The position numbers were made by a program, and so were the translations under genes. The notes below the pieces were generated by a model. The model saw only the letters and a list, made by a program, of their open reading frames with translations, did not search any database and was not told where the DNA came from. From Suillus spraguei (taxonomy: Eukaryota > Basidiomycota > Agaricomycetes > Boletales > Suillaceae): a DNA stretch of 64,000 bases. Below, piece by piece: positions 4,166 through 37,061 of the stretch (position 1 is its first letter; every line of letters starts with the position of its first letter). The stretch covers positions 372,001 through 436,000 of the forward strand of contig JABCPU010000003.1 of NCBI GenBank assembly GCA_016800925.1, given 5' to 3'.

Positions 4166-4167
4166 TA

Positions 4168-4231
4168 CAGCTGTGTGCAATTCTAATGAGATTGGTAAAA
4201 ATTCGTAACGCGTGTGACAAAAAAGGAAATC
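4168..4231 (+). repeat. T1 left terminal inverted repeat
   Basis: Pairs with the right terminal repeat at 6222-6285, whose outermost 10 bp now lie at 37035-37044. The first 31 bp match perfectly; further in there are a few substitutions. Confidence 0.85.
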
Positions 4232-5044
4232 AACAGAACAACACGTCCTGGACATCAGGGGAGACTTCTTGTAGCTTGTACAAAGTTTTCAGACACTATC
4301 AGCCCTTCATATTGCTTCTACTATGTGTCATACACATATATTTCTATGGCAAAATGAAAGACAGCCAATTCGAAAAAGCCAACAATCAAAATCCCAGCCA
4401 GACCTGAGCTCAAAGCTGTACCTGTGGATGTCCAGGAGCCTAGTGACGCGCCCATGCCATATGTGAATGATGCTGAGAGAATAGGGCACCTCTCTGAGGC
4501 TGACTGGTCAACCAAAAATCTAGTAGAAGAAGATGACGAGGTAGAAGTTGATCAGTTGGAGTCCAAGCAGGAAGATCAACCAGAATGGTGTGATATTGGT
4601 CAGTTTACAAAACTGGTTGGCAGTTTTTCCTCGGTGCGCACAAGAAATTTTGTACAGCAATAAAGTCAGGTACTTGGACGTGATGATTCATTGTCAACCT
4701 TTGCAGAAGATTCTCTGAACACTTGCATCAGGAAATTCACACATTCCTTGACGTGCCCTTATGCGGACTTATTTACACTTAACTGCCTTGGTGAAATTGA
4801 ATCTACTTGTCCAAAATTTCAATGTGAATGAATTCAGAAAAAAAAGTTGAGATATATTAATATACATGTTTTATTGTATTTCGCACTCAAAAAATATAAG
4901 ATATGCCAGGTGAATGATGTGAGAGAGAGCAAACAAGTTTTGAGATAAGTGAGTTAAGCTGATTAAGCATGTTAAGGAATGTGTGAATTTCCTGATGCTG
5001 AGCACTTTTATTTGTACAATAGCACGACAGTTGAACATGCTGAA
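4232..5044. other. T1 non-coding 3' segment
   Basis: Lies downstream of the T1 transposase stop. It contains a plus-strand open frame at 4424-4663, acidic and without known motifs, and a perfect 25-bp inverted repeat (4725-4749 with 4974-4998). This is longer than expected for a minimal Tc1 element, so it may hide an older small insertion. Confidence 0.4.
4725..4998. repeat. 25-bp perfect inverted repeat around a 224-bp spacer
   Basis: GCATCAGGAAATTCACACAT plus 5 more bases at 4725-4749 is repeated in inverse at 4974-4998. It may mark the ends of a small non-autonomous element or a foldback inside T1. No flanking duplication was identified. Confidence 0.6.
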
Positions 5045-6173
5045 TCATGTAGCAATATAACCTGCATTTTTGAACCATGCATATGCATTCTCTGGTGTGA
5101 TACAACCTGTGGCTTCATACAGGGCCTCAACTGGGTCTTCATATTGGCGTAATTTGTCACCATGATGGCAGATGTAAGCTTTCACTGTTGACCTTGAATA
5201 AGTAGATGAATCAGGCAGGACAATGAGAACTTACAAGCACTAAATGACTCCTCGATTGGAGTGAGATCTGGGGAGTAAGGAGGTAGATAAAGTACAACAC
5301 AACCTATTCAACTTCATCAAATTTCTGGAGGATCCAAACACTACTGTACAAACCTGCACTCTCAACAAGGTCCACAAGGTCCTGATTATGGTGGATTCGG
5401 CAATTGTCAAGGACAAGGATAGACCGTTCTTGAGGATACGGGTTCATATGTGGGAGCTAGTAGGACAAGTCCTGAAAAGCTGAGCAGATATTACAGTAAG
5501 AGAGAATTACTACATCTTCCAAAACAAAATCATAGAACTCTTGTGCATCAAATGAGCCTTCGATAACACGTGTTGCAAGATAGCCGTCTATGGTCACGGC
5601 AGCACATAGCAAGTAGCGGTCTCCTTGAACAAAAACGTCACAAAGCTGTGCACGTTGTCCATGGTGTGATCATCCATAATGGCGTGCATGAGTGCACTCG
5701 TTCTTACTAGTTTCATTGAGGACAATGAACTCTGAGCCATTGCCAACAAAGTCATTCCGAAGACTGTCTTTGAACTCCTCTCGACAGACATTGTCATGTT
5801 CATGAGCAATCTTCTGGAGCATTTTTCGAGAAAGGCCAGCTTGTTTGAGATTGTGAGATAAGGATGATGAGCTGATGGTGATGTTGTGCTTGACTGCAAG
5901 CCAGGTACAAATTTCATCAAGGAACAGATCTGATTCTTCAGCAAAGAGGTCTTTGACTGCTGTCATGAGTGCTCATGTGATTATCCTTGTGCGGCCAACA
6001 AGTGGAGAAGAGGGCCTAGTAACAGTACCAAGTTCTTCAAACATGTTTTGCCAACAAAAGCAGCTGGCCCACGAAACACAGAGCAATTCACAGATATCTT
6101 GGACCTCCCAACTGTGATCCCAGAGTGTAAGTGCACATTCTTTTATATTGTTGCTTATTCGTTGGTTGACCAT
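5045..6173 (-). pseudogene. T1 transposase (IS630/Tc1-mariner, DDE_3 type), broken
   Basis: Cut-and-paste transposase of a type common in mushroom genomes. It starts MVNQRISNN at 6173 with a helix-turn-helix region (ALTLWDHSWEVQDIC), followed by SPLVGRTRIIT. The catalytic half is shown by ETSKNECTHARHYG, DRYLLCAAV, then ILVLDNCRIHH and YLPPYSPDLTPIE, and it ends ENAYAWFKNAGYIAT before a stop at 5045-5047. Two introns are likely near 5470-5520 and 5180-5240. In-frame TGA codons lie at 5973-5975 and 5670-5672, each where the family has Arg, so both look like CGA to TGA changes. The product cannot be full length without readthrough. Confidence 0.85.
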
Positions 6174-6277
6174 GGTGTACAGGCGATGGCGAGAGATAGG
6201 CTAACTTTATGTTTGCTGGCATCTGAAGGGGACTTCCTTTTTCATCACACGTGTTATGAAAATGTTACCAATCTCAT

Positions 6278-6285
6278 TAGAATTG
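6278..6285 (+). repeat. KDZ target-site duplication, left copy (TAGAATTG)
   Basis: Eight bases of the T1 right terminal repeat directly before the KDZ end CACCTGGCC. The identical copy lies at 37027-37034 directly after GGCCAGGTG. Eight bases is the duplication length I recall for the KDZ superfamily. Confidence 0.88.
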
Positions 6286-6799
6286 CACCTGGCCTTCCCA
6301 ATAAGTAGCTTTACTAATACAGGACAAATACATGTGCCGTCAATTACTAGAATAGTCATTTGCGCTAAAACATCAACACCAGCCATAACCCTTGCCCCAA
6401 ATCCTGCGTGTCCTTAGATATATCTACATACAAGCCTCGGGGAAACTAGGTAGGTTCCGTTCTGTGTACATTCCGCCCCGATGCTAATCCGGCTGTTCCT
6501 GTTTCATCGCTAAACCATCCGCTCCGCTATATGAACTGTTCCCATGACTTTCCTTCCCCTCCCTCATCGTTGTCTGTGATGCTGAGGCTGTCAGAGACAT
6601 GTAGGCTTGGTTCTGGACATTGCCCTTGATGAAATCAATGGTTCTAGTGCTCATCTCCCTTTGTTTGTTGCCCCTTGTCGGTGACTCTGGTGTTGGCAAG
6701 GTACGTTGCTGCTGCGTCTACTAATACCAAGTACCTACTAACTAATGACCTGATGTTGTTCAACAGTCTCTCCTCCTCCTCTGTTTTGCAGACGACATG
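6286..6799 (+). repeat. KDZ left terminal inverted repeat, segment 1
   Basis: About 514 bp matching the reverse complement of the outer part of 35318-37026. Most differences are CpG/TpG or CpG/CpA pairs. It ends with one subterminal repeat unit and stops at GACGACATG, where repeat R begins; the uninterrupted right copy continues directly into CACACTGAG. Confidence 0.85.
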
Positions 6800-7620
6800 C
6801 TGTAGCAAACAAAGTCACGCTGACCATGAAAGTGCTGTTTTACACAAGTTTCTCGTTACTGCCTACAGCAGCTACTGAGAAAACCCCTATAGCGAGCATT
6901 ACCCCTTTTCGCTTCGCCGGTACCGTTTTTGCTCCGTGGATCCTTGCCCCTTACCAAATCTTGCTACTGATGTCCTCCTGTCCATTCCATTTCCGTCTAA
7001 GATCCATTGGTGCATAGCATATTCGTTTCCACCATTACTAAAGCTACGGCAAGACTTACCTTACCTTCCGTGACACCGCTTGCTCGCTGCATGCCTCTTA
7101 GCTAAATATCTCTATCTCGCTACTGTTCTTGCTATGTATTCCGGCCGTTCACGGTACATGTTAAAAAGGACTCTTTGCACATTCTGGTACTTTTACTTTT
7201 CCCTCTATGGTACACACAGTACTTAGGAATTGTCACCACTACTGTCTCTAACGGAATAAAGTCTTTCGCCAAAGTCACTGGCTCTTAAGAATTGTTTTAC
7301 TGCTGCATGCACCACCGCTCTTTACCGCTTTCCTGCGCTTCACCGCTTGTTTTACTGCCAGTTTCCCACACCTTACCGCAGTTTTACTGCACGCACTACC
7401 GCAGTTTTACCACTTTCGCTACCGCTTGTCTACCGCTTTCCCGCGCTTACCGCTAGTTTCCCACGGACTGGAGGTCACCGCTAGCATCTCGCTACCTCTG
7501 ACGACAGTCTTGCACCACAGGTTGGGCATTATTGAGCTATATTGACTTAGCATTCCCTTTAGGGTCGAATGCTCTTGCTTTGCAAGTGAAGCAGACTAGA
7601 TGGAGCGCAAGACTCACATA

Positions 7621-7836
7621 CAGTGGCTCAAAAAACTGTCTGCATGTTTTGGCATTTTTCACTATCTATAATATTGTGTGAGAACAAACAAATGCCTCAA
7701 AAACATGCTTATACCACATTGTAGTATGGCTTCAGGGCTTTTATTTGAGCCCTACACCGTGGGAATCGGTGGAGATATGGTGGAGATACAAGGCTCACAA
7801 AATGGTGACTCATGCGGACAGTTTTTTGACTCAAGT
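7621..7836 (+). repeat. T2 left terminal repeat with IR/DR structure
   Basis: Pairs with 9026-9238. The motif CTCAAAAAACTGTC, or a close form, occurs at both the outer and the inner edge of each terminal repeat, so each end carries two direct repeats as in IR/DR-type Tc1 transposons, where they bind transposase. Confidence 0.8.
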
Positions 7837-7860
7837 ATTTTACAGTAATAACCAGGTATT

Positions 7861-8877
7861 CTAGTATTTTGTATGACCTCCCTTGGCTTTAATTACTGCC
7901 TCTATCCTTCTAGGCATACTCTCAATTAATTTCTGGCAATCCTCAGCTGTGATCTTCCCCCATTCCACTGCTACTCTCTCCCAAAGCTCCCATACTCCTT
8001 TAGGGGGGTTTTCATAGGCTTGAAGCTTTTTCTTGAGTGTTCCCCAGAGATGTTCAATGACATTGACATCAGGAGACTGTGCTGGCCAGTCAAGAACATT
8101 GATGTTATGTTCTTCAAACCATTCCCTAGCTCTTCTGGATGTGTGCTTGGGATCATTATCCTGTTGGAAAATGATATCTTCTTCATCAATCCCTGATTCT
8201 GCCAAGCTAGGCAGCAAGTGGTCATTTAAAATGTCCACATACTGCTCAGCATTCATCTTCCCCTCAACCTCAGCAAGCATTCCCACACCATTCCATCCCA
8301 TACAGCCCCATACCATTAAAGAACCTCCTCCAAACTTGACAGTCCCATTAACCTCTCTGTCTGTTAGGCCATCTCCCTTCTTTTTCCATACATACACCTT
8401 CCCATCTGACCCAATCCTATTGATTTTGGTCTCATCTGACCATATAACATGCTTCCAGTCCTCTACAGTCCAGTGTTGATGAGCTAAGGCAAAGGCTAGT
8501 CTTCTCTGCCTATGTTTGATGGAGAGAAGAGGCTTTTTCTTCTTTGTTACTGCCTTGAGATGAGCTGCCTTGAGAACATTCCTCACAGTTTGTGAAGAGA
8601 CAGGGGTAGTGATGGTGGAATTGATATAATGGGTGGCTTGGACAGCATTATCAGCCTTTCCTGTAGTGATATGTTGGATAATAGCCCTTTTGTCAGTAGA
8701 GGTAAGCTTGGATGGACGTCCTCCACAAGAGTTTTCCTTGTCTGGGTGGCTTTCTTTGATGAACTTGGCCACAGTGGACTTGCATACTCCAGTTCTAGAG
8801 GAAATTTGGCGAGCAGAGAGGCCAGCATAAGACAGAGAGAGGATATTATCTCTTTGAGCAGAGGAGATGGCTTTCAT
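7861..8877 (-). CDS. T2 transposase, DD34E Tc1 family, intact
   Basis: 338 residues from MKAISSAQRDNIL. The frame is open 26 codons further upstream, but this Met starts the conserved N-terminal DNA-binding region (SYAGLSARQISSRTGVCKSTV, a paired helix-turn-helix, with GGRPSKL between the subdomains). Catalytic residues visible: Asp in WSDETKINR, Asp in FQQDNDPKHTS, and Glu in SPDVNVIEHLW, with 34 residues between the last two. It fills the space between the terminal repeats and has no stop or frameshift. The length is normal for the family. It probably acts on the T2 ends in the nucleus; activity is inferred from intactness only. Confidence 0.92.
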   Translation of the reverse strand: MKAISSAQRDNILSLSYAGLSARQISSRTGVCKSTVAKFIKESHPDKENSCGGRPSKLTSTDKRAIIQHITTGKADNAVQATHYINSTITTPVSSQTVRNVLKAAHLKAVTKKKKPLLSIKHRQRRLAFALAHQHWTVEDWKHVIWSDETKINRIGSDGKVYVWKKKGDGLTDREVNGTVKFGGGSLMVWGCMGWNGVGMLAEVEGKMNAEQYVDILNDHLLPSLAESGIDEEDIIFQQDNDPKHTSRRAREWFEEHNINVLDWPAQSPDVNVIEHLWGTLKKKLQAYENPPKGVWELWERVAVEWGKITAEDCQKLIESMPRRIEAVIKAKGGHTKY

Positions 8878-9025
8878 GGTGATTATGACTATGATACATG
8901 AGATATTCTGGTTTATATAGTTAGATATAGTCATAAAATAACATAATGACACCACTTTATAATTTATATAATAGTGGCATGATTTTTATGGTGTCATAAA
9001 TAATGATTTATATAGTTTTAATATA

Positions 9026-9238
9026 CACTCAAAAAACTGTCCACATGAGTCATCATTTTATAAGCCTTATATCTCCACCATATCTCCGCCGATTCCCACG
9101 GTGTAGGGCTTAAATAAAAGCCCTGAAGCCATACTACAATGTGGTATAAGTATGTCCTTGAGGAATTTGTTCATTCTCACACAATATCATAGATAGTGAA
9201 AAATGTCAAAACATGCGGACAGTTTTTTTGAGCCACTG
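9026..9238 (-). repeat. T2 right terminal repeat
   Basis: Inverse of 7621-7836 with scattered differences; carries the same outer and inner CTCAAAAAACTGTC motifs. Confidence 0.8.
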
Positions 9239-9294
9239 TACTAGTTTAGGCTGTGGTTCATCTACAGCCCAGGCTAGATTGTATCTTTACAACG

Positions 9295-10097
9295 CACACT
9301 GAGAGTTATAGCACTGTTTGGTGTTAGGTATGTTGCTGCCGTTCCTATCAATAGCAAAGTACCTACTGACTGTTGTTCAACAGTCTCTCCTCCTCCTCCG
9401 TTTCGCAGATGACACACACACTGAGAGTTATATAGGATTGTTCGGTGTTAGGTACGTTGCTCCCCTTCTTAACAATAACAAGTACCTACAGACTGTTGTT
9501 TAACAGTCTCTCCTCCTCCTCCATTTTGCAGACGACACGCACACTGAGAATTATATAGGATTGTTTGGTGTTAGGTACGTTGCTCCCCTTCCTAACAATA
9601 ACAAGTACCTACTGACTGTCGTTCAACAGTCTTTCCTCCTCCATTTCGCAGACGACACACACACTGAGAGATATATAGCATTGTTTGGTGTTAGGTACAT
9701 TGCTACCATGTCTACTAATACTAACTACACACTGACTGTCATTCAACAGTCTTGCCTCCTCCATTTCACAGATGACACGTACACTGCACTGAGAGTTATA
9801 TAGCATTATTCAGTGTTAGGTATGTTGCTGCCATGTCTACTAATACTAACTACCTGCTGACTGTCATTCAACAGTCTCGCCTCCTCCTCTGTTTTGCAGA
9901 CAACACGTACACTGAGAGTTATGGCACTGTTCGGTGTTAGGTACATTGACACACCTTCTGCCTTACTTTATGCATAGTCTTTTTCGGTAGGACGCGCCTC
10001 GTTGACACACCTTCCACCTCACTTTACAAACATCCCCCATTTGTTAATTTTATCCAGCAGGGCTCGCCTTGTCACTAACCCTTCTGCCCTGCTATAC
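9295..10097 (+). repeat. KDZ left terminus, segment 2: array of ~120-bp subterminal repeats
   Basis: Six units starting CACTGAGAGTTATATAGC at about 9297, 9419, 9542, 9661, 9788 and 9911. Each carries a near-palindrome GACTGTTGTTCAACAGTC (8-bp stem, 2-base loop, some decayed). The last 150 bp are unique sequence matching the inner part of the right terminus (about 35385-35490). The segment breaks at GCTATAC, where R copy 2 enters. Confidence 0.85.
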
Positions 10098-11369
10098 GGT
10101 GTAATGAACATATTGGCGCTAGGCTTAAAACCCCACCTTTTTGACACTTGTCTCACATCTACAGGAGTTACCACTTGTCTATGGCCGTCTTACCCCTTTA
10201 GCAGTACCGGCGGCATCCCACACTTACCGCACACCATACCGACTGCTGCACCACGTTCCATGTACTGATGTCCTTCCATGTCCTTGCCACGTCCACATAG
10301 CTCCATTTGGTGCATCATTTGTTTTCTGTTCGTTATCACTGATTCCACGGTGTGACAAACAAACTCATGCTGAGCTTGAAACAGCATGTTTTCATATAGG
10401 TGTCAACTGGCAATCATTATCCTTACCCTTCAGCTTCACCGTCCTACTTTACCATGTGTTACCCCTATCTGACGGTATTGTTCCGCACTCCGAAAGCCTC
10501 ATTGCAGCTTAACGGCTGTACTACGGCAACTTTCCTGTGAAGCGGTGATCTTTGGCAATCTCCACGAACCCATTAGGCATCCACAAGCAAGATTCACCAT
10601 CCGTCCTATGTCCATCCAGTCTCGCCGGTACGTTATGTTTTGTAAACTGTAGTGCAGTCTTATTACATGTCTGCTGCGTGTTAATCCTATCCCTTCTGTT
10701 TCCATAGCTATTCCTTCCGGATAAAATTCCTAGGTACCTGTACTCGTTCCTTACTTCCCTCCTATAGTACACATGGTACTTAGGAATAGTCACCACTATT
10801 GTCACTATGAAATAAAGTCCTTTACTGAAGTTACTGTCTCTAAGAATCGCTTTACTGCTGCACGCACCACCGCTCATTACCGCTTTCCCGCGCTTCACCG
10901 CTAGCGCTAGTGCTTTCTCACGCTTCATCACTACACTACCGCTTGTTTTACCGCAGAAGTTCCCACGCTTACCGCAGTTTTACCACTCGTACTACTGCAG
11001 TTTTACCGTTCACGCTACTGCTTGTCTACCGCATTCCCATGCTTACCGTTAGTTTTACCGCAAGTTCCCCACGGACCGGAGTATTACCGCTAGCATCTTG
11101 CTACCTCCGACGGCATTCTCGCACCACAGGTTAGGCAATATCGAACTATACTAACTTAGCATTCCCTTTAGGGTCGAACGTTCTTGCCTTCGCAAGTGAA
11201 GCAGACTAGGTAGAGCGCAAGACTCGCATACTAGCTTAGGCCGTGTGTCATATACCGTACATTCAGGTCTGATCCATGGACATCTGGACACCCAATCAAC
11301 ATCCATCCATATCTAATCCATATCCATATCCGACTCAGTCCATCCATCCGATCTGATCCACTCATCCAA

Positions 11370-11470
11370 TCCATGTCCATATCCGATCCATGTCCATATC
11401 TGATCCGTGTTCATATCCGATCCATGTCCATATCCGATCTGTGTCCATATCCGATCCATGCTCATATCCG
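11370..11470 (+). repeat. 17-bp minisatellite
   Basis: About six tandem copies of CCATATCCGATCCATGT with substitutions, inside C1. Confidence 0.75.
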
Positions 11471-12092
11471 AAACTATTCCCGTGCACCTGCACGTTACTC
11501 CTTTTAGGTTAATACCTGTGTCCGGCTTTCGGTTATCTCTGCACTCTGGCTTTCGGTTATCTTGACTTCTGTCTTGATAAGATATTTCGTACAAGTCTTA
11601 TTTCCGAGTTCATAGCCTTGTGTTCTGCAATGCCTCAAACATAGCCTCAGACTATCCTTACTTGCCTTCCGGCATGCTACCTACAGTATATAAACTTGTA
11701 GTACAACTCCTGCAGACCTCAGTCTGATTCATTGTTCCTACTTCTGTATATTCCTTTGATTACTCTGTATCCTGTTATCATGTCTATATAACTCCATCTC
11801 CGTTCTTGCACTTGGGCTCCGGCCCTTGTAAGCTTCCAACTCAGGTCTATGGGATCACTCCCTAGGCCGGAGCTTTGATCCTATGTCCTATAATCTTTTC
11901 GGACTTCGTCCATCTCCGTCTATCACCTGTTTCACCTCCGACTCTACCTTTGGTAGTCTTATACTGTCTGTTTCTATTCCGGACCTTGTCCGGAGTAGTC
12001 TACACTATCTCTACACCATATCCGGACCTACTCCTCTCTAGTAGCCAACACTCCCTCTAAGATCCGCAGAGCTATGCTCATCCGATCATCCG

Positions 12093-12410
12093 CTCCTCTG
12101 CTCCTCTGCTCCTCTGCTCCTCTGCTCCTCCGCTCCTCCGCTCCTCCGCTCCTCCGCTCCTCCGCTCCTCCGCTCCTCCGCTCCTCCGTCCTCCGCTCTC
12201 CCGCTCCTCCGCTCCTCCGCTCCTCCGCTCCTCCGCTCCTCCGCTCCTCCGCTCCTCCGCTCCTCCGCTCCTCCGCTCCTCCGCTCCTCCGCTCCTCCGC
12301 TCTCCGCTCCTCCGCTCCTCCGCTCCTCCGCTCCTCCGCTCCTCCGCTCCTCCGCTCCTCCGCTCCTCCGCTCCTCCGCTCCTCCGCTCCTCCGCTCCTC
12401 CGCTCCTCCG
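12093..12410 (+). repeat. CTCCTCCG microsatellite, ~40 copies
   Basis: 318 bp of an 8-bp unit, with CTCCTCTG variants at the left edge and two 7-bp slips. Open frames on both strands across it are artefacts of the repeat. It accounts for much of the length difference between C1 and C2. Confidence 0.9.
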
Positions 12411-12900
12411 GCTCGACCTTCGGACCCCTAGTCCTTCGGATCCATCCTATCCTATCCTCTGACATCTATGGATCATCTTTCCCTCCGGAGCTCTGCTCCT
12501 ATCCTGCCCTGGACTTTGTCCAGCGGTCCATCCTTCATCCGTTCTACTTGGAGCTTGTTCCAGTAGTGTTACCATTACTCCCTACCTTCCGGAAATAGTT
12601 CCGGCGCATTCCCGCGCTCATCCGGAAGTCCATCGGAGCTCTGTCGAGCTATCCTGCCTTAGAGTTCGTCCGGACCCTCCATCCGGACTTCACCAGAACT
12701 CTCCCTTGGACTTCATCCGAAATTAAGGGCACATACTCGGGTAAGGGGCACAGCGTACAAGCTGAGGCCAAGCCCCTTTGACTTTACAACCCTCCGGTAC
12801 AACCCCATGTAAGACCAGGACTTCTTACTAATCTCCGGTTTTGCATGGTTGTAACACCGTGGTTTATCTACAGCCCAGGCTAGATTGTATCTTTACAACG

Positions 12901-13593
12901 GCAAGCCTTATTACATGTTGCCTCGTGCCGCAGCACCTCGTGCTATGTTTACTTACGGCGGTTACTACACTCCAACGCTACTGATCTCACCTAGAGTATT
13001 CCGAGTACATATGATTTAGGATATAAGCACCGCGTACCCTGCATGATAGAAGTACCTGATTTTACACCATTGCATGTACTATAGGTCAGGATTATTGTCT
13101 AGCTCTGGATCTACCCAGTAGTGGACATAGTCTTTAAAGTTTCCTTATTGCTTGTTAATACATCATGCTCATTCTCCGTTACCACTGGACTTTTGACAGT
13201 TAATTTGACAGAACTTCTCACGCACCGCTGCTTTACCACTGAAAGTACTGCGGCTTTCTTTACTGTTTCCTTGCACTGCTCGCAACCTTACCGCTACCGC
13301 TGATACCATCGCTCGATGCAACTGTTACTGATCATATCTCGACCACGGTAGCACCACTACACACAACACTAGTTCTGGCGGTATCATCGCTGACCGTGGC
13401 AACTTACTGCTGACCTCGATGCTTGTTTCGCACATAAGTTAGACTCAAACTTGACCATACTAATAGGCATCCCCATTTAGGGTCGAACGCTCTTGTTCTT
13501 ACAAGTGAAGCAGACTAGACGGAGCGCAAGACTCACATACTAGTTTAGGCAGTGGTTTATCTACAGCCCAGGCTAGGTTGTATCTTTACAACG
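12901..13593 (+). repeat. unclassified repeat R, copy 3
   Basis: Lies directly after copy 2, so the two are head to tail. It ends with the same roughly 130 bp (GGGTCGAACG ... CATACTAGTTTAGG ... TCTTTACAACG). The 5' part differs from copies 1 and 2. After it the KDZ left terminus resumes with GAACTGTTCCC. Confidence 0.5.
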
Positions 13594-13655
13594 GAACTGT
13601 TCCCACAGCCTTCCCTCCTCTTCCCTCATCGCCATCTCACATATTCAGGCTGTCA
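13594..13655 (+). repeat. KDZ left terminus, segment 3 (inner end)
   Basis: Continues the inverted match to the right terminus (inner limit near 35318) up to CATATTCAGGCTGTC. After this the two ends differ and unique KDZ sequence begins. Confidence 0.75.
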
Positions 13656-13681
13656 GCCCTCTTCTATCATACATTTGCTGG

Positions 13682-25910: not shown

Positions 25911-25921
25911 AGGTTTGAACT
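25911..25921 (+). other. Element B primer-binding site, self-priming type
   Basis: AGGTTTGAACT, two bases after the 5' LTR. Fully complementary to the predicted first 11 nt of the element RNA; the match stops there on both sides. Confidence 0.75.
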
Positions 25922-26682
25922 TTAGGGGACTCCGACTCGCATACCGCTGCATACTTTTCTTTTGGATTCCTCTTCAACGATAGTACCGTTGTAGACGACT
26001 CTCAAAAGTCTCTTATCATCTTCTGTACGCGTCTGTAAAGGCACTCGCACTTGCAGGCTAGTACAAAAACGTTTTGTCTTGCCCGACCCTAAAAAGTCGC
26101 GATCTTTCCTCTCCCCTTTGCTCATTTGAGCACATTTCTACCAATAGTCTTTTGTAGTTAGTAGACCTCTACCAGGCCCAGCTTTACATTGCTGCTGCTA
26201 GTAGACGGTGGACGAGCAACATTAGGTGTTCGATCCGTGACCTCAGTGCTGGCCCAAGACCCTGCCTGCTGAGCTCTACAATAGTTTCCTTTTACGATAG
26301 TTTTCTCTTCATACGATAGAAGGTCTAGTCTTCTTCGAAGTATTTAGTGGAATTGCCTCGTTGTTCAAGATAGACTGGTCGCTTGTAAGCTTCGGCTGGA
26401 AGAGCACCGTGTCCCTCGAGTTTTTCCCACTTTGAAGATTACAAAAACCTTTACTATAGTTTTCTTAGTTAGTAAATAGGGAAGCGCCTAGTTGGGTTGA
26501 TTAAAGAACCCTTTAGGACCTGAGTACGTGGTAGATCCGATCAGATATCGGGGACCGCTCAGTTTTCCATTTACATACTTCTTTTCCCATCTCCTCTTCA
26601 CCATTTTTCCTTTTCGGGTTGACCGTTACGACTAGTCAACCACAGACATCAGTAAATCGGGTTCCAGAAAACAACTGGTACT
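25922..26682. other. Element B 5' untranslated leader
   Basis: About 760 bp between primer site and gag start with no coding signal recognised. It probably carries packaging or translation elements, which cannot be told from sequence alone. Confidence 0.5.
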
Positions 26683-27720
26683 ATGTCTGCTCCCACCACT
26701 ACCATTCACAACGAACAAGCTTTGGCTGAGTACATCGCAAATGCTATCAATGTTGCGATTGCTCCAGTCCAAGAGCAAGTTCAAAGGCTCAGGAATATGA
26801 ACGATGTCTTACAAGACCAGAACGAAAAACTCCATGAAGAACTTCGTCAATATAGGGAAAGAATTGATGAACTGGAAGCAAAACCAACATCAACAGGAGG
26901 AACTCCCAAAATTGCGAAGCCAACAGAGTTCACTGGAGGAAAAGACTCCATCGACGTCGAAACATTCCTGGCACAAGTATCCCTTTACCTCACACAATAT
27001 CCCAATGCAACGCAACAACAACATCTCAGCTTAATGTTGTCTTATCTTAAGGGAAATGCCGGAAAATGGGCAGAACCTTACGTTAAGAAACAAGCTGCAG
27101 GAAAATTGGACTTCAATGAATTCTTAGAGGAGTTCTCACGCATGTTTAAAGATGAGAACAAAGAAGCGAAGGCCATCAGAGAATTAGAAACCCTTAGGCA
27201 AGGATCTAGTTCTGTTCCAGAATACGTTGCATCTTTCAAACAAAAGTCGGTATTCACAAACTTCTCCGACTACGACCTCCGCCTCAAACTCCGATCTGGT
27301 CTACAAACCCGGATCAAAGAACAACTCGCTCATGTTGCGCTCAAAGACAAGAATACTCTCAACAAACTGATTGAAAGAGCAGTAGAAATTGGGCAAAACT
27401 TTGAAGAGTTGGACGCAGAGAAGAAGCGAAACACCTGGTGGACTCCCAAGTCTAACAGTGGAGTTCCTTCTTCATCAAGGGCTGGACCCAGTAACAGTGA
27501 CGCTATGGATGTCGACTCCGGAAGGCAAAAGACTGCCCCCAAACCGCAAGGAAAGCCTGGTGCTTTCAAATGTTACAGATGCGGTGGAGAAGGCCACATG
27601 GCTAGGAACTGTAAAGAAGCGCCAAAACCAGCGCAAGTGAAGGCATCGTCTGCTGAAGAAGAAACCGCGCCTAAATGGTTCAAGGACTGGTTATCCTCCA
27701 AAGAAGGCAAGGGTTTTTAG
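26683..27720 (+). CDS. Element B Gag
   Basis: 345 residues from MSAPTTTIHNEQ. A coiled-coil-like N-terminus (about residues 25-70, VQEQVQRLRNMNDVLQDQ), the retrotransposon gag domain (about 78-245, FTGGKDSIDVETFLAQV to LRQGSSSVPEYVASFK), a basic linker, and one zinc knuckle CYRCGGEGHMARNC (about 297-310). It forms the particle and packages the element RNA in the cytoplasm. The stop TAG at 27718-27720 follows the slippery site directly, and the pol frame already overlaps from 27675. The frame is fully open. Confidence 0.93.
   Translation: MSAPTTTIHNEQALAEYIANAINVAIAPVQEQVQRLRNMNDVLQDQNEKLHEELRQYRERIDELEAKPTSTGGTPKIAKPTEFTGGKDSIDVETFLAQVSLYLTQYPNATQQQHLSLMLSYLKGNAGKWAEPYVKKQAAGKLDFNEFLEEFSRMFKDENKEAKAIRELETLRQGSSSVPEYVASFKQKSVFTNFSDYDLRLKLRSGLQTRIKEQLAHVALKDKNTLNKLIERAVEIGQNFEELDAEKKRNTWWTPKSNSGVPSSSRAGPSNSDAMDVDSGRQKTAPKPQGKPGAFKCYRCGGEGHMARNCKEAPKPAQVKASSAEEETAPKWFKDWLSSKEGKGF
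27711..27717 (+). other. Element B -1 frameshift heptamer GGGTTTT
   Basis: Reads G GGT TTT in the gag frame, which fits X XXY YYZ, immediately before TAG. A -1 slip gives GGG TTT TTA GAA and enters pol. GGGT at 27723-27726 could pair with ACCC near 27752-27755 as part of a downstream stem, but no structure was computed. Confidence 0.72.
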
Positions 27721-30700
27721 AAGGGTTGAAGTCAGAGTCTGCAGACCTAGACCCGAACAATCGATTCTCTATTCTTTCTAGTTTTTCAGATGTAACGGAA
27801 GTGTATATACGATCCAAATCAGAACATTTTTATATTCCGATTACACTGAAAGGAAAGAACAGACAAGCAGACGTAAAAGCACTTGTGGACTGTGGTGCAT
27901 CAACATTATTTATAAGTGAAAGATTTGTGAAGAACAATGATGTCCGGTGTCGTAAATTATTGCGTCCCATACCAGTCAAAAACATTGATGGTTCCTTAAA
28001 TGCCGCCGGAGCTATGACAAGATTCGCTGAAATAGGATTAAAGATTGGAGATCATGAAGAAGACAAAGCAGCCTTCATGGTTACAGATCTAGGAAGCGAT
28101 GATGTTATTATCGGTATAGATTGGCTAAGGTATCATAATCCGGAGATTGATTGGAACGCAGGACGATTTGCTCTTACACGATGCCCAATCAAATGTGAGA
28201 CTAAAAAAGAAAAAAGACAAAAAAATAGAGAAAAACAAAAAACCCAAAAACAGGGTGACTTGCCAGATCTGATTCCCACGGAAGAGGAAGATGATGACGA
28301 AGGCATGGCGAAGAAGAGGGCGATGGTTGAGGAAATAGAAGATGAAGATAGTCCAAGGAATGAATGGATTAGATATAAAGCTTCTATCGCCACAGAACAA
28401 AAGGTAGCAGAGGAAGCTACTAAGAAGAAAAAGTCTGTAGAAGAAATGGTTCCAGACTGGCTTCATGATTACCTGGGTGTATTCTCAGAAGAGGAATCAA
28501 AGAGATTTCCTGAAAGAAAGAAATGGGATCATGCGATAGATCTTAAAGATGAGAATGATCTTCCACCGAATGCAAAACCGTATCCTTTATCACCCAAAGA
28601 AATGGACACACTGAAAGATTGGTTAAAAGCCGAAACTGCATTAGGACGTATTAGAGATTCACAATCTCCTGTTGCAGCACCTTTCTTCTTTGTGGCCAAA
28701 AAAGATGGCAAATTACGACCAGTAATGGACTATAGAAAGCTCAATGAGAAAACGGTTAAAAACGCGTACCCTTTACCGAGATCTCAAGATCTAATTGATG
28801 CTTTAACTGGTGCCACAATGTACTCCAAAATGGACGTACGATGGGGATACAATAATATTCGGATGAAAGAAGGAGACGAGTGGAAGGCAGCCTTCAAAAC
28901 GCCTTTTGGTCACCATGAACCAACCGTAATGTATTTCGGGTTGACAAATTCTCCAGCAACTTTCCAGACCATGATGAATGAAATATTTAGAGATCTTATT
29001 GATGGAAAGATGGTCGTTGTCTACATCGATGACATCTTGGTCTTTACAAATGGAAATAAGGAGCAACACCGAAAAGTCGTGCGAGAAGTACTCAAACGAT
29101 TGAAAGATAATGACCTGTTCTTGAAACCAGAAAAATGTAGTTTCGAACAGTCTAAAGTCGAATTCTTAGGGTTGATCGTGGAAAAAGGCAATGTATCTAT
29201 GGACCCTGTGAAAGTAGAAGGAGTATTAAAATGGCCTGTTCCCAAATGCGTAAAAGACATACAAGCATTCATGGGTTTTGCCAACTTCTATCGAAGATTC
29301 ATATTGGGGTTCTCAGATATAGCCAGACCAATGAATGATTTGCTAAGAAAAGATGTTCCATGGAATTGGACGGAGAAACAACAAAATGCATTTGATGAAT
29401 TAAAGAAACGATTCACAGAAGCTCCGCTCCTAGTAATGCCAGATGTTGAGAAAAAGAAAAGAATAGAGACCGATGCTTCTGATTATGCATCTGGTGCAGT
29501 ACTTTCTCAACAAATGGAAGATGGACTATGGCATCCTATCGCTTATTATTCAAAGTCAATGAATGATGCAGAACGAAATTACGACATTCATGACAAAGAA
29601 TTATTAGCAATCATTCGAGCGTTAGAAGAGTGGAGGCACTATGTGCAGGGAGCACCTTATCCTGTGGAAATCTGGACCGATCATAAAAATCTCGAGTATT
29701 TCATGACGAGTCAAAAATTGACACGAAGGCAAGCCAGATGGAGTCTGTTCCTGGCTGAGTACGAATTTACACTCCAACATAAGCCTGGTGTAGTCAATGA
29801 TAAGGCCGATCGTCTGTCTCGGAGATCAGACCACAGAGGGGGGGTAGAAAACGACAATTCTGATCGCATTTTGCTTAAACCGGAATTTTTCAAAATCAAT
29901 GCTGCTAAAAGAGGCCAAGTTCTTATAGAAGGAGAAAAATCTCTTCTTAAAAAGATCAGACAAAGTACAGAACGAGAGCCTGAAGTGATGAAAGCGCTAG
30001 AAACGTTAAAAGCAGCACCGGTGCAATTGCGTAGAGGAGTCGAAGAATGGAATGTTGAAGATGGATTGGTGTTATTTCGAGGATTGGTCTATGTTCCAAA
30101 TGATAAAGAAATCCGCCGAGAGATTCTAGAGTTATTCCATGACTCACCACCGGCTGGACATCCTGGACGTGCCAAAACCTTAGAATTGATTTCCAGAAAC
30201 TATTGGTGGCCAATGATGACAAAAAGTGTTCACGACTATGTAGATGGTTGCGATCGTTGCAGACAAACAAAGGTCTATCCTAGTAAACCGACAGGACCTT
30301 TACAGCCAAATGAAGTTCCAGAAGGACCTTGGCAAACGATTACATGTGACCTGATTGTGGACCTACCAAAGAGTGAAGGGTGTGATAGCATTTTTGTTGT
30401 CGTTGATCGATTTACGAAACAAGCACACTTCATTCCCACCAATAAAGAAGTAGACTCGAAGGAAATTGCCGAGCTATTTTTGAAAAATGTATGGAAACAT
30501 CATGGAACACCAAAGAAAGTGATTTCAGATAGAGGAACACAGTTCGTATCGAAATTTATGGGACAAATGTCAAAAAGGTTAGGCACAAAATGGTCTGCTT
30601 CGACCGCCTATCATCCCCATACAGACGGACAAACAGAACGCGTAAATCAAGAAGTTGAACAATATTTACGCCTGTTTACCTCTTATAGACAAAATGATTG

Positions 30701-31664
30701 GGTATCTTGGTTGCCGATTGCAGAATTCTCGCATAATAACGCAGTCACAGTCACCGGTCATAGCCCTTTCAAAGTTCTATATGGATACAATCCAGAATTC
30801 ACGATATCTCCTAATTCCAACTCCCGTATTCCTGTTGCCGATGAAAGAGTGGATCAAATGAAAGAAGCAAGAGATGATGCGGAAAATACCTTGAAACTAG
30901 TCAATGAACGAATGAAACGGTTCTATGACAAAGGAGTAAAAGACGCACCACAGTATAAAAAGGGAGACAAAGTCTGGCTAGACGCGAAAAACATTAAACA
31001 ACGTCGTCCAAGTCAAAAATTGTCAGATCGTCGTCTTGGGCCCTTTGAAATACTAGAGAAGATTGGCGAGGTGAACTATAAATTGAAATTACCGGCAAAT
31101 TATCAGATCCATCCGGTTTTTCACGTTCAATTACTCACCCCATACTATGCATCTCAAATGATCCCTCATTCTCAACCCACCCGACCACCTCCTGACATAG
31201 TTGACGATCAGGAAGAATTTGTTGTAGAAGAAGTATTAGATAGCCGACTATTCCGAGGAAAGCTGCAATACCGAGTAAAATGGGAAGGATATCCGATAGA
31301 AGAATCGACATGGGAACCAGAAGAAAACGTAAAGAATTCCCCGATTCTTATAGCAGAATTTCATAAAAAGAATCCCACGGCGGCTAAAACCAAAAGAATT
31401 CAAGGTTCTATACTTAATTCGGAAGATTTCAAGAAATGGAGAACACGTAACATCAGACCTTCATACATTCGCGATGACGCTCATCCTAGAGAGGGGGTAA
31501 TGTCACGAATTCCAAATACAAATCATTACTCTTTCCTCAATTTCCCTAAAGCGTCTAAACCCAGCGCTAAGACAAACACAAACTCCATTGAAATCCCTAT
31601 AACCGCTTCTATAACCGAACTCCCTGATGAAGACGAAGAGATCTTTTATGATGCTATCGGATAA
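27711..31664 (+). CDS. Element B Pol polyprotein (PR-RT-RH-IN-chromodomain)
   Basis: About 1318 residues after the frameshift. Protease ALVDCGASTLFISERF (Cys in place of the usual Ser or Thr after Asp) and GIDWLRYHNP. RT with SKMDVRWGYNNIR and the catalytic VVYIDDILVF (29020). RNase H with ETDASDYASGAVL and TDHKNLEYF. Integrase zinc finger HDSPPAGHPGRAK to CDRCRQTK, core with CDLIVDLP, ISDRGTQF and TDGQTERVNQEVE, then a GPF motif (RRLGPFEIL). Chromodomain EEVLDSRLFRGKLQYRVKWE at 31220-31280, probably steering integration to heterochromatin. The last 55 codons lie inside the 3' LTR, so the stop at 31662-31664 is supplied by the LTR. No nonsense codon or frameshift is seen. Confidence 0.94.
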   Translation, partial: GFLEGLKSESADLDPNNRFSILSSFSDVTEVYIRSKSEHFYIPITLKGKNRQADVKALVDCGASTLFISERFVKNNDVRCRKLLRPIPVKNIDGSLNAAGAMTRFAEIGLKIGDHEEDKAAFMVTDLGSDDVIIGIDWLRYHNPEIDWNAGRFALTRCPIKCETKKEKRQKNREKQKTQKQGDLPDLIPTEEEDDDEGMAKKRAMVEEIEDEDSPRNEWIRYKASIATEQKVAEEATKKKKSVEEMVPDWLHDYLGVFSEEESKRFPERKKWDHAIDLKDENDLPPNAKPYPLSPKEMDTLKDWLKAETALGRIRDSQSPVAAPFFFVAKKDGKLRPVMDYRKLNEKTVKNAYPLPRSQDLIDALTGATMYSKMDVRWGYNNIRMKEGDEWKAAFKTPFGHHEPTVMYFGLTNSPATFQTMMNEIFRDLIDGKMVVVYIDDILVFTNGNKEQHRKVVREVLKRLKDNDLFLKPEKCSFEQSKVEFLGLIVEKGNVSMDPVKVEGVLKWPVPKCVKDIQAFMGFANFYRRFILGFSDIARPMNDLLRKDVPWNWTEKQQNAFDELKKRFTEAPLLVMPDVEKKKRIETDASDYASGAVLSQQMEDGLWHPIAYYSKSMNDAERNYDIHDKELLAIIRALEEWRHYVQGAPYPVEIWTDHKNLEYFMTSQKLTRRQARWSLFLAEYEFTLQHKPGVVNDKADRLSRRSDHRGGVENDNSDRILLKPEFFKINAAKRGQVLIEGEKSLLKKIRQSTEREPEVMKALETLKAAPVQLRRGVEEWNVEDGLVLFRGLVYVPNDKEIRREILELFHDSPPAGHPGRAKTLELISRNYWWPMMTKSVHDYVDGCDRCRQTKVYPSKPTGPLQPNEVPEGPWQTITCDLIVDLPKSEGCDSIFVVVDRFTKQAHFIPTNKEVDSKEIAELFLKNVWKHHGTPKKVISDRGTQFVSKFMGQMSKRLGTKWSASTAYHPHTDGQTERVNQEVEQYLRLFTSYRQNDWVSWLPIAEFSHNNAVTVTGHSPFKVLYGYNPEFTISPNSNSRIPVADERVDQMKEARDDAENTLKLVNERMKRFYDKGVKDAPQYKKGDKVWLDAKNIKQRRPSQKLSDRRLGPFEILEKIGEVNYKLKLPANYQIHPVFHVQLLTPYYASQMIPHSQPTRPPPDIVDDQEEFVVEEVLDSRLFRGKLQYRVKWEGYPIEESTWEPEENVKNSPILIAEFHKKNPTAAKTKRIQGSILNSEDFKKWRTRNIRPSYIRDDAHPREGVMSRIPNTNHYSFLNFPKASKPSAKTNTNSIEIPITASITELPDEDEEIFYDAIG
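31488..31500 (+). other. Element B polypurine tract
   Basis: AGAGAGGGGG then TAA, directly before the 3' LTR. It primes plus-strand DNA and lies within the pol reading frame. Confidence 0.8.
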
Positions 31665-31977
31665 GATAAGATAAGATAGTGTCACGTGATCTTAGAACCT
31701 TCTAGAATATGATGTCATAAACAATGTCACAATCATCACATCGTACGATTCTCATTTCTATTTTATGATTGGCTAGTAGTTTCAAACTCAGTTTATATCT
31801 CAGTTTCAATATGTGTATATAGTTAGCTAGTTTCGCTGTAGTAGTTCTTTAGTTCAAACCTCTTGTATCTACATCTGTAGCAATCCAAGACGTCCTTGCT
31901 CCTCTCTTTCTCTGTGACAACCTTAGTTTGAGTCCTAGTCTCTGCCCTAGCGTTAATTCGTTTTGTGGGTTGTGACA
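31501..31977 (+). repeat. Element B 3' LTR
   Basis: Same length as the 5' copy with no difference found by eye; followed by the TSD CAACA (31978-31982). Confidence 0.95.
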
Positions 31978-33196
31978 CAACACCTCTTACATCGAAGCTG
32001 CCCTTCTATGTGAAGGACACGCTCTTGAAGTTGAAAGAATCCTCACAGAAAGAGGTGCCTTCCCGGCCCTCCTCCTTGTCAACATTATCCATACTGCCGC
32101 TCTTATCGAAACCACTGCCAATGAAACCACAGACACTACATATCATCAACGCTTCCTACATCTTCAAAAACGCATTCGTTCTTACGCTATGCTGCTGCTT
32201 CCCAATTCTTTTAAGAGCGATGTTGAGGAAGCTATTCACATTGTGGCCGAACGCCGAGCGGGTATTGCTCGACCTCCCTCTCCGCAGGAAGATACGCCAC
32301 TTCCTATCCCAGCACCCTCTTCTTCACGCATGTATTCTAGTGTTGACGCCCTTGCTGGCTTATGCACTGCTGTCCAGGAGATCAGACAGCTCACCAACGC
32401 AGTTGTCGAAACCATTCAGCAATCAGTTGCTGAAACCAGAGCGGCCAGAGACCTAGTCGAAGAAGCCATCACTGATCTGCAACAAACGCAAGCCGACCTC
32501 GCCTCTCCACGAACCCCATCTCCCATCGAACAATCAACCTCGTCGCCCCCTGTTATAGTCTCCCATGATCATCCTGCATGGTTATATGAGCCTTGTACAG
32601 AAGAACAGTGTGAAGCTGCAAAAAAGTTAGGAATTCCTGTTGCTGAATTGATAGCACTCGGCCCTCGACTTCACGACCTTCACATTCACCCTCCCATGTC
32701 CATTCTGTCATCATTTGGTCCAATGGATCCTGTCTCGCCAGTCTTAGTAAAAGACTTTGGCATAACTTCTCCCTCTTCTTCTAACGAACTTCTTGCGATT
32801 GCCGAACGAGGAACCACTCCTAATCTCCCAGTATCAGCATACGCTCTTTCCCCTGATCAACAAGCGCAGCTCAGATGCAATAACACTCTTGCCTTGAAAC
32901 GCATGAGGCGGAATAAGGGGAAGAAGCGCGCCAGATCCACTAGTCCTAAACCCATCATTTCACCATCACCATTATGCAAATCCATCTCCAATCCCGATGA
33001 AAACATGAAATGTCACGTCTGTGGATTACTTGGGCATCGTCAAAAGAACTGTGCGGAATACCAGTGCAAAGTTTGCAGATACTGGTCGCCTACTCATCTA
33101 TCCATTTATTGTCCTCGACGAGTTGGAACCCCTCCTTTTACGTTAACTTGGAAGGACAATGGATTCTACGATGCACTTAGTTCTTGGGAACGACAG

Positions 33197-33966
33197 TGTT
33201 AAGACTGTACTCAAGGGTAGAAAGATCCGAAGGGCTTTTGGCCTCAGTTCGTACACTGTGCCCCTTTCTCGAGTAATGCCCCTTATTTCTGGGAGGAGTT
33301 ATTCGTCCAAAGACCCGGAAGGGTTTGCGTGACGGATCCGGGTGTCCAAAGGTGTCGGATATGATATGTCCGAAGGTAATTCGGAACGTAAGGAGAGGAC
33401 AGAGATTAAGGCTAGTTTCGGAACGAGTTCCTAACTAGAAACTAATGGAGATGGACTATCCGAAGATAGAGTCGGAGGTATAGACTATAGGAATCAATCC
33501 TAAGTCTCGGAAGGTGACTTTAAGCAGAGAGGGACTTAAGTCCGGAGGAGGCAGAATGAGTAGAATCTAAGATGATATTCGAACTAAGGTTCTACGGAGA
33601 TCTACAAGTGGTTTATATACAGTAAGTATCTAAGACGGATAATCAGCAAGTCCGGGACCGAGGGCTATGTACGAAGTGTAACGGAAGTCTATTAGTTATT
33701 GCACAGCGGATCAGTAAGCATGAATCGGAAATGAGCACAGGAAACGGATCAGTAACACAGGACGGAAATATAAACAGCCGGAGTACCGGTAGTAGGAGAA
33801 ATGACGAAAGGAGATAGACGCAGATGTTCACCAGGGAGTTAAGGTGCGAGAAGTGAGTACATTCGGATGGGTGGTCCGGACAGGATCTGTGGACCGGACG
33901 GATATGGAAACGATCGGATCTGGACGGATATGATCAGATCTGAGATTAGAAGTATGGTATATGACA
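33197..33966 (-). mobile_element. C2: solo LTR inside element A
   Basis: 770 bp, TGTTAAG...TATATGACA, flanked by GACAG at 33192-33196 and 33967-33971. The ends are the inverse of C1 (TGTCATATACC at the other end), and TTTATATA at 33612-33619 is the inverted TATA box. Its insertion adds the codons Cys-stop after ...WERQ of A ORF3; the frame resumes at LDDERLQ. Confidence 0.87.
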
Positions 33967-34146
33967 GACAGCTTGACGATGAACGACTTCAAGCAGAGAA
34001 AAGGAGGGACTCTAAACGACGCGCAGGTGTTGAAGAAGCTGTGTATATGAGGAGTGGATCATTTGCTGATGAAGACTACGAGTATAGTGATGACCCTGTT
34101 TACTATGCGAACCAGGATGAGTAAAGTCAGTGACTTTACGTGTAAC

Positions 34147-34156
34147 AAGGGGGTAA
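34147..34156 (+). other. Element A polypurine tract
   Basis: AAGGGGGTAA directly before the 3' LTR, like the tract of element B. Confidence 0.75.
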
Positions 34157-34631
34157 TGTTACAGTTGTACGTGCCCCTATTCATTCTCTCTTTGTTTCCC
34201 TACTTGTATATCATGTCACATGACTCTGACTCATATGCTCAATGCATCTGTACTATAGTTGCCTTCCTTATTTGGATACGCACTTACTTTCCCACGTCTC
34301 TCTTGGTCCGTGTGCACATATTGGTCTATTTAAGCACGTTGTACTTGTAGTAGATTCTTTACTTTAATCTTACTGGGTTTTACCTGGAATCTCCTTCGCT
34401 TAGGTCTCCAACCTAAGTCGTCTTGAATCATCTCTAAGTCTAAGCACTCCTTAGCCTTAGTCTCTATTCTCGCAGAACCTCTTAGACTTGTCTTTGAGGC
34501 CGAACTGTTGATCGTACTCGGAACGCGTTCCTTGTACTTTCACCTTGTCCTCGTCTGGACATTGTAGAACTTCCCAGCAGACCGGCTGTGTCTTTTCACT
34601 GTCGCTGGTGACGCCATCCCAGTTCGTAACA
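34157..34631 (+). repeat. Element A 3' LTR
   Basis: 475 bp. The four differences from the 5' LTR are CCGTGTG/CCATGCG (two sites), AACTG/AACCG and ACTCGG/ACTTGG, all CpG transitions. Followed by the TSD TCTAT. Confidence 0.95.
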
Positions 34632-34636
34632 TCTAT

Positions 34637-35099
34637 TTCCCTTCCCGAGCTGCAGATGCTCCATGACATGTGGAAGAACAAGCTGATTTCATGGAGACTC
34701 CTCAACGAGGATGAATATCAGCGGCTCCTTCAAGAGCACAACAAGAAGGTTAATACTGGAGAGATAGTCGAGTCCTCCCATCAGCCTCACTCAGACAAGG
34801 GGAAAAAATGTGTCCGACCAGTTGAGGAACCTTCCATTCCTCATCGCAAGAAGGTATACAAAAGCCTAGACACTATTGAGAGTAGTGATGAAGAGGTCAA
34901 TGCACCACACACAGGCACTTCGGCACCTTCACCCTCAGCGCCTTCGCCCTCTTCTGTCCAACCCTCTGTGTCTACTTCGGCACCTTTGCCTTCACCTTCT
35001 TCTGTCCAGCCCTCTATGTCTACTTTGGCACTTTCGTCTTCGTCTCCCTCTGCATCTACTTCAGCTCCTTCAACAGCAACTGCTTCTGCCAGTACCTGA
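34637..35099 (+). pseudogene. second KDZ gene, 3' part
   Basis: Continues the frame broken at 19679: after the TSD it reads SLPELQMLHDMWKNKLISW, then EHNKKVNTGEIVESSHQ and SDKGKK, and ends in a long Ser/Pro/Ala-rich tail with a stop at 35097-35099. The joined protein ends here. Function unknown. Confidence 0.72.
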
Positions 35100-35317
35100 T
35101 ATCATGACACATACAGATAATCTTGATCCCTTGCTTACAAACTTCAATTTTGACATCAATCCAAGTAGTTCACCAGTATGATATTGCAAACACTTTGAAT
35201 ACATATATTGCTACAAACTCCTTTTCACTTCACTGCTGTTCTCATTCAATCCAAGTTGTCCGCCAGTATGATATTGCAAGACCATCTTGCCTTGGAGTAC
35301 AATATTGCGAGAAGACC
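35100..35317. other. KDZ spacer with short direct repeats
   Basis: Two copies of CCAGTATGATATTGCAA (near 35172 and 35261) and a decayed third form near 35300, between the last KDZ gene and the right terminus. Confidence 0.6.
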
Positions 35318-37026
35318 GACGGCCTGAATATGTGAGATGGCAATGAGGGAGGAGGGAAGGCTGTGGGAACAGTTCCATATAGCAGGGTAGAAGGTTTAGC
35401 GACAAGGCAAGCCCTGCTGGATAAAATTATGAAATTAATAAAAGGAGGATGTTCCTAAAGCGAGGTAGAAGGTGTGTCAATGTACCTAACACCAAACAGT
35501 GCCATAACTCTCAGTGTACGTGTCATCTGCGAAATGGAGGAGGAGGCGAGACTGTTGAACAACTGTCAGTACGTAGTTAGTATTAATAGATGTGGTAGCA
35601 ACGTACCTAACACATAATAATATTATGTAACTCTCAGTGTATGTGTCGTCTGAGATGGAGGAGGAGGTGAGAAGGAGGCGAGACTGTTAAACAACTGTCA
35701 GTATGTAGTTAGTATTAATAGATGTGGTTGCAATGTACCTAACATATAATAATATTATGTAACTCTCAGTGTATGTGTTGTCTGAGACGGAGGAGGAGGC
35801 AAGGAGGAGGCGAGACTGTTGAATGACTGTCAGTACGTAGTTAGTATTAATAGATGTGGTAGCAACGTACCAAACACATAATAATATTATATAACTCTCA
35901 GTGTATGTGTCTTCTGCGAAACGGAGAAGGAGGCAAGACTGTTGAACGACTGTCAGTACATAGTTAGTATTAATAGATGTGGCAGCAACGTACCTAACAC
36001 ATAATAATGCTATATAACTCTCAGTGTATGTGTCATCTGCAAAACAGAGGAGGAGGCGAGACTGTTGAATGACAGTCAGCAGGTAGTTAGTATTAGTAGA
36101 CATGGCAGCAACGTACCTAACACCGAACAATGCTATATAACTCTCAGTGTACGTGTCGTCTGCAAAACGGAGGAGGAGGCAAGACTGTTGAACAACAGTC
36201 AGTGTGTAGTGAGTATTAGTAGACATGGTAGCAACGTACCTAACACCGAACAATGCTATATATCTCTCAGTGTGCATGTCATCTGCGAAACGGAGGAGGA
36301 GAGACTGTTGAATGACAGTCAGTAGGTACTTGTTATTGTTAGTAAGGGGAGCAATGTACCTAACACCAAACAATCCTATATAACTCTCAGTGTGTGTGTC
36401 ATCTGCGAACCGGAGGAGGAGAGACTGTTGAACAACAGTCAGTAGGTACTTGCTATTGATAGGAACGGCAGCAACGTACCTAACACCAAACAGTGCTATA
36501 ACTCTCAGTGTGCATGTCGTCTGCAAAATGGAGGAGGAGGAGAGACTGTTGAACAACATCAGGTCATTAGTTAGTAGGTACTTGGTATTAGTAGACGCGG
36601 CAGCAACGTACCTTGCCAACACCAGAGTCACCGACAAGGGGCAACAAACAAAGGGAGATGAGCACTAGAACTGTTGATTTCATCAAGGGCAATGTCCAGA
36701 ACCAAGCCTACATGTCTCTGACAGCCTCGGCATCACAGACGACGATGAGGGAGGGGAAGGAAAGTCGTGGGAACAGTTCATATAGCGGAGCGGATGGTTT
36801 AGCGACGAAACGGGAACAGCCGGATTAGCATCGGGGCGGAATGTACACGGAACGGAAACTACCTAGTTTCCCCGAGGCTTGTATGTAGATATATCTAAGG
36901 ACGCGCAGGATTTGGGGCAAGGGTTATGGCTGGTGTCGACGTTTTAGCGCAAATGACTATTCTAGTAATTGACGGCACACGTATTTGTCCTGTATTAGTA
37001 AAGCTACTTATTGGGAAGGCCAGGTG
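35318..37026 (-). repeat. KDZ right terminal inverted repeat, uninterrupted 1.7 kb
   Basis: Reverse complement of the three left segments. About nine ~120-bp subterminal units between 35486 and 36610, then the outer ~500 bp. This is longer than the left copy because of more units. The 316-codon open frame across it results from the unit being close to a multiple of three. Confidence 0.87.
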
Positions 37027-37034
37027 TAGAATTG
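37027..37034 (+). repeat. KDZ target-site duplication, right copy (TAGAATTG)
   Basis: Matches 6278-6285. The next 10 bases, CACACAGCTG, are the severed tip of T1. Confidence 0.88.
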
Positions 37035-37061
37035 CACACAGCTGTAATAATTAGTAACCAG

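What the first reader, a model, noticed from the sequence alone, without database searches (positions are those of the whole stretch)
4166..37046. Four-level nest of transposons, every level proven by its own target-site duplication
T1 (TA) contains KDZ (TAGAATTG), which contains A (TCTAT), which contains B (CAACA) and C2 (GACAG). KDZ also contains T2 (TA) and C1 (CCGTG). Each removal restores either a terminal repeat, an R junction or a reading frame. Seven dated insertions in one 33-kb interval give a full relative order and show that this site, next to a host promoter, keeps accepting insertions while the flanking genes remain.
Basis: seen in the sequence. Interest (0 to 1): 0.88.

Follow-up and report, generated by a model that had tools for sequence, protein, structure and literature searches.

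The report
Nested transposons, filled separately in two alleles
A stretch of fungal DNA holds at least eleven transposons inserted one inside another, and a second copy of the same locus in the same assembly carries the older insertions but a different set of later ones, so most steps can be checked against an uninterrupted site and the nest seems to have grown independently in the two copies.

The parts
4166..37046 (.). T1, Tc1/mariner-like relic (4168-37044) with TA duplication at 4166-4167 and 37045-37046; outermost level; shared with C719
   Evidence: 31-bp terminal repeat restored when KDZ is left out; HTH_33 (E 1e-5) and a weak DDE_3 remnant (E 1e-4, below Pfam's cut-off) on the minus strand at 5304-5972; 40 candidates scored in each of two searches, this locus and C719 included, mostly partial relatives
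4726..4997 (.). Y, 272-bp MITE-like element with ~32-bp terminal repeats, inside T1; private to the window at this position; C719 has its own Y (C719:1044-1316) about 340 bp away in T1 coordinates
   Evidence: each position is empty in the other copy; 40 of 40 scored candidates near 100% identical, the window's own included; 2-bp duplication in 9 of 10 other copies checked; the window copy reads TG/CTG, one extra base
6286..37026 (+). KDZ transposon inserted in T1; 515-bp terminal repeats; duplication TAGAATTG 6278-6285/37027-37034; shared with C719
   Evidence: Pfam KDZ transposase at 15245-15703 (E 7e-46) and a fragment below the cut-off at 14631-14963
6801..9291 (.). [not shown]
   Evidence: contiguous relative in L020; the tandem unit at 9494 shows the uninterrupted sequence
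7621..9238 (-). [not shown]
   Evidence: DDE_3 E 6e-16 and HTH_Tnp_Tc3_2 E 1e-12; empty in C719; 40 of 40 scored copies, the window's own included, print as 100% identical
10100..13590 (.). [not shown]
   Evidence: contiguous relatives L025 and C364
10351..12897 (.). [not shown]
   Evidence: C364 has the uninterrupted site
11246..12856 (.). [not shown]
   Evidence: empty in C719, where the site reads CCATG
13595..19674 (+). KDZ transposase region, in pieces, with a ~430-bp deletion at 18382/18383 relative to C719 and C364
19680..34631 (+). A, Ty3-type LTR element inside KDZ; LTRs 19680-20156 and 34157-34631 differ at 4 of 475 aligned positions; duplication TCTAT; private to the window
   Evidence: gag and RT/RNaseH/integrase zinc-binding domains; empty in C719; LTR comparison
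25432..31977 (+). B, Ty3-type chromovirus inside A; LTRs identical (0 of 477); duplication CAACA
   Evidence: gag, protease, RT, RNaseH, integrase and chromodomain; LTRs; 10 of 10 A copies fetched are empty
33197..33966 (.). C2, solo-LTR-like element of family C inside A; duplication GACAG
   Evidence: 10 of 10 A copies fetched are empty
35415..36613 (.). KDZ right subterminal tandem repeats (units of 120-132 bases), inverted relative to those at 9292-9970

Best explanation
[not shown]
For: Empty alleles and relatives. Second copy with colinear flanks: the match 35694-54668 (end of KDZ plus right flank) is 98.8% identical including gaps; substitutions are 0.18-0.61% in five flank pieces. Both ends of C719 fall inside the match, as for a haplotig; window 55000-63900 has no near-identical second copy (best other match 82-84%), and window 1-2480 matched only itself in the rows shown (list cut). 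Private insertions that hit the shared backbone directly: 11 of 11 in the nest (about 14.4 kb), none of 100 bases or more in about 18.5 kb of compared flank. For the seven of C719, which did not guide the choice of this window, chance under uniform insertion is 0.003. CpG positions changed: 193/573 in nest, 14/1719 in flank; transversions 17/10527 and 10/18295. LTR differences fit the order: A 4/475, B 0/477. Chromodomain in B.
Against: Transversions are also about threefold higher in the nest (p 0.008) and non-CpG transitions sevenfold (105/9954 against 26/16576), so part of the divergence may be an older common ancestor of the nest or weaker constraint. With C364 as outgroup, C>T/G>A exceeds the reverse 21 to 6 in the window lineage but is 18 to 18 in the C719 lineage; the outgroup may itself be decayed. 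Another near-identical contig pair with a T1 relative (L061/L062, 3,346 aligned) shows 0 of 292 CpG changed and one difference in all, so the pattern is not shown to be general. Flanks carry genes, so their lack of insertions can be selection alone. T2, a later arrival, has a CpG observed/expected of 0.13, so CpG poverty is no clock across families. No reads, no methylation data, no species name.
Confidence: 0.78

Rival explanations
1. C719 is not the allele but a segmental duplication of the locus, and the two nests diverged as paralogues in one genome.
For: The assembly is unphased and unnamed; no reads or ploidy data were at hand.
Against: C719 lies entirely inside the match (window 3340-54668) with both contig ends in homologous sequence, and 55000-63900 has no near-identical second copy, as expected for a leftover haplotig. 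The empty-site tests hold either way.
Confidence: 0.12
2. The nest is only a record of tolerance: insertions land everywhere and survive where they do no harm; there is no attraction.
For: The wider flanks carry gene domains (WD40, JAB/MPN, UreF) and the compared part has no large insertion in either copy. The insertions come from families with different mechanisms (Tc1-type, MITE, LTR), which need no common targeting.
Against: Nothing here excludes it. B has a chromodomain, a feature known to guide integration to silenced chromatin in some elements (recalled).
Confidence: 0.5
3. Assembly artefact: repeats collapsed or joined wrongly made the nest.
For: Repeat-rich locus; no long reads available to me.
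Confidence: 0.03
4. The excess divergence of the nest is mainly age: its two versions are older than the flanks, which recombination or gene conversion kept alike.
For: Transversions about three times the flank.
Against: CpG change is about 41 times the flank (33.7% against 0.8%), far beyond the threefold of transversions.
Confidence: 0.2

Closest known systems
Nested LTR retrotransposon clusters, best described in plants
   Same: Younger elements inside older ones, ordered by target duplications and LTR divergence; Ty3-type elements prominent (PMC6911290, start of abstract in the search listing)
   Different: Here DNA transposons form the two outer shells, and the same locus exists twice with two different later fillings
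KDZ (Kyakuja-Dileera-Zisupton) DNA transposons
   Same: KDZ transposase domain, terminal inverted repeats, 8-bp duplication as stated for Zisupton (PMC12730594, passages)
   Different: No TET/JBP domain in the nine KDZ-region frames given to Pfam (one of them partly in A); transposase in pieces; long subterminal tandem arrays
CpG-type C-to-T decay of transposons in basidiomycetes
   Same: CpG context of the transitions (PMC4352252, passages)
   Different: The TpCpG preference that the paper cites for Microbotryum is not seen; here the decay is read between two copies against near-identical flanks
Haplotype-specific transposon content of dikaryotic fungi
   Same: Differences between nuclear haplotypes are described genome-wide (PMC5821087, PMC12411881; titles and starts of abstracts in the search listing)
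   Different: In the listings I saw no paper that resolves one nest insertion by insertion in both haplotypes; these are two searches of an open-access library, read as listings only

Membership tests
KDZ DNA transposon | KDZ transposase domain | tested here: met
   PF18758 at E 7.2e-46 on 15245-15703; a second piece at 14631-14963 (E 3.8e-05) is below Pfam's cut-off
KDZ DNA transposon | 8-bp target duplication and terminal inverted repeats | tested here: met
   TAGAATTG both sides; 515-bp arms at 97%; 8 bp is stated for Zisupton in PMC12730594 (passage)
KDZ DNA transposon | Working transposase (for an autonomous copy) | tested here: not met
   Only frames of up to 164 codons in the region listed and a ~430-bp deletion at 18382; introns were not modelled. 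Family membership stands, activity does not
Ty3-type chromovirus (B) | gag, protease, RT, RNaseH, integrase and chromodomain between LTRs | tested here: met
   Pfam hits incl. rve E 1.7e-10 and Chromo E 3.5e-16; identical LTRs
Ty3-type LTR element (A) | gag and RT-RNaseH-integrase order between LTRs, 5-bp duplication | tested here: met
   of the integrase only the zinc-binding domain was detected in the frame scanned
Tc1/mariner (T2) | DDE_3 transposase, TA duplication | tested here: met
Tc1/mariner (T1) | DDE transposase, TA duplication | tested here: inconclusive
   TA duplication met; transposase only as fragments: HTH_33 E 1e-5, DDE_3 E 1e-4 below Pfam's cut-off
[not shown]
   ends and 4-5-bp duplications met; full-length parents were not looked for
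RIP (repeat-induced point mutation) | C-to-T bias in CpA context, or TpCpG as cited for Microbotryum | tested here: not met
   CpA 21/1352 (1.6%) against CpG 164/470 (34.9%) in four KDZ pieces; among CpG, ACG 43%, TCG 31%

The most novel reading that the evidence does not exclude
Once T1 and KDZ were silenced, the block became a self-reinforcing landing pad: methylated, decaying chromatin draws in new elements, and the same few families (A, B, C, Y, Z-like) refilled it independently in two nuclei, so the two alleles are replicate runs of one process rather than one shared history.
Probability: 0.3. Interest if true: 0.62.

Novelty: new member of a known kind. Interest (0 to 1): 0.45.

Why it matters
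Nests are usually read from one copy, where order is inferred and gain, loss and misassembly are hard to tell apart. Here a second copy gives a before-state for the private insertions of each. It offers a replicated test of why transposons pile up: attraction to silenced DNA, or survival where they do no harm. It also measures CpG decay in a transposon block against flanks that are nearly identical between the copies.

Tried and rejected
I call it a basidiomycete from its KDZ content and CpG-type decay, an inference.

Reading the swapped order of 4384-4725 and 4726-4997 in C719 as a rearrangement: rejected; it is the small element Y at two different positions.

Y as one element that hopped 340 bp: not favoured. 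40 of 40 scored Y candidates are near-identical, so two independent insertions suffice; the C719 copy differs from the window's by two CpG-type changes and one extra base, read from the sequence printed.

The ~430-bp difference at 18382 as an insertion in C719: rejected; C364 carries 415 of 429 bases of the block at 96%, so the window has a deletion.

The ~1-kb T1 stretch 4562-5582 as a further insertion: not supported; relatives lack it but no duplication is visible; internal deletion in the relatives is simpler.

Element X of C719 (about 9699-10658): matches Z relatives at 66-90% over parts only; its family was not settled.

C747/C540 (L003/L004) as a further allelic pair: over 3,023 aligned bases 166 transversions, not a clean pair.

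Rfam at gathering scores and the tRNA scan found nothing. A search for papers on CpG-poor transposons escaping methylation gave no direct match in the eight rows listed of 74.

Full report
What was claimed. A four-level nest with seven insertions between 4,166 and 37,046, each with its own target duplication. All seven are there; coordinates are in the parts list. The right end of A is 34,631 (duplication TCTAT at 34,632), as the alignment with the second copy shows.

The independent test. The assembly in which the window lies (G000, 86.2 Mb, 1,256 contigs) holds some. Contig C719, 44,282 bases, aligns from window 3,340 to 54,668 (alignments of at least 150 bases and 85% identity kept). Its flanks are nearly the same as the window's: substitutions 5/826, 10/2451, 13/4992, 13/4966 and 9/5060 in the five pieces compared. 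It carries T1 and KDZ with the same duplications. At the T2, C1 and A sites it reads straight through with one copy of each duplication (the C1 site with one base changed, CCATG). For B and C2, which sit inside A, I took the ten best-scoring A-family copies besides the window's own, of 40 scored, and fetched 120 bases around each of the two joins. All 10 are continuous across the B site (one with a single-base gap nearby) and all 10 across the C2 site. For KDZ in T1 the test is weaker: the T1 ends restore a 31-bp perfect terminal repeat, and one of 16 T1-family loci compared, L054, reads through the site with four bases missing just beyond it; most others stop matching before it. T1 itself has no empty site here.

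Is the clustering more than chance? The shared backbone is about 14.4 kb and the compared flank about 18.5 kb, nearly all of it on the right. All 11 private insertions that hit the backbone directly are in the nest. The flank has no gap of 100 bases: the right-flank alignment has 101 gap bases in all, and the longest gap in the pieces is 32 bases, at a piece edge that I cut. The window was chosen for its nest, so only the seven C719 insertions are a fair test: 0.003 under uniform insertion. The flanks carry genes, so this does not separate attraction from survival.

Order and age. LTR pairs differ at 4 of 475 (A) and 0 of 477 (B in A); those of the complete B in C719 at 0 of 481 with one gap base. 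KDZ terminal repeats differ at 16 of 515 in the window and 10 of 515 in C719. This agrees with KDZ before A before B. Insertions in different parents cannot be ordered by containment.

How it most likely works. See Best explanation. Insertions and containment order: shown. Two haplotypes, silencing and any attraction: inferred. The chromodomain of B is a plausible guide for B alone.

Scores. The element families are of known kinds and nests are common; the second copy makes this one more useful than most. Interest 0.45.

Noticed in passing
7621-9238: T2 is almost free of CpG (9 in 1,617 bases; about 68 expected by shuffling single bases) yet has an open 374-codon transposase frame, and 40 of 40 scored copies, its own included, print as 100% identical. 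A recently amplified element in a genome whose transposon block loses CpG; it may offer methylation little to act on.
   Followed up: partly
4726-4997: Y is a very homogeneous 272-bp MITE (40 of 40 scored candidates near 100%) with a 2-bp duplication of variable sequence; no partner transposase was sought.
   Followed up: partly
L020-L033: Z elements appear inside other Z elements elsewhere in the genome, for example in L025 and L026, as read from the alignments.
   Followed up: partly
C364:98001-120000 (L039-L041): A third KDZ copy at about 93% with its own A-type LTR and C-type sequence.
   Followed up: partly
11999-12598: An array of 8-base units inside C1 gives a 199-codon open frame made largely of a repeated peptide.
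   Followed up: no
2834-3755: WD40-type repeats of a large gene family just left of T1.
   Followed up: no
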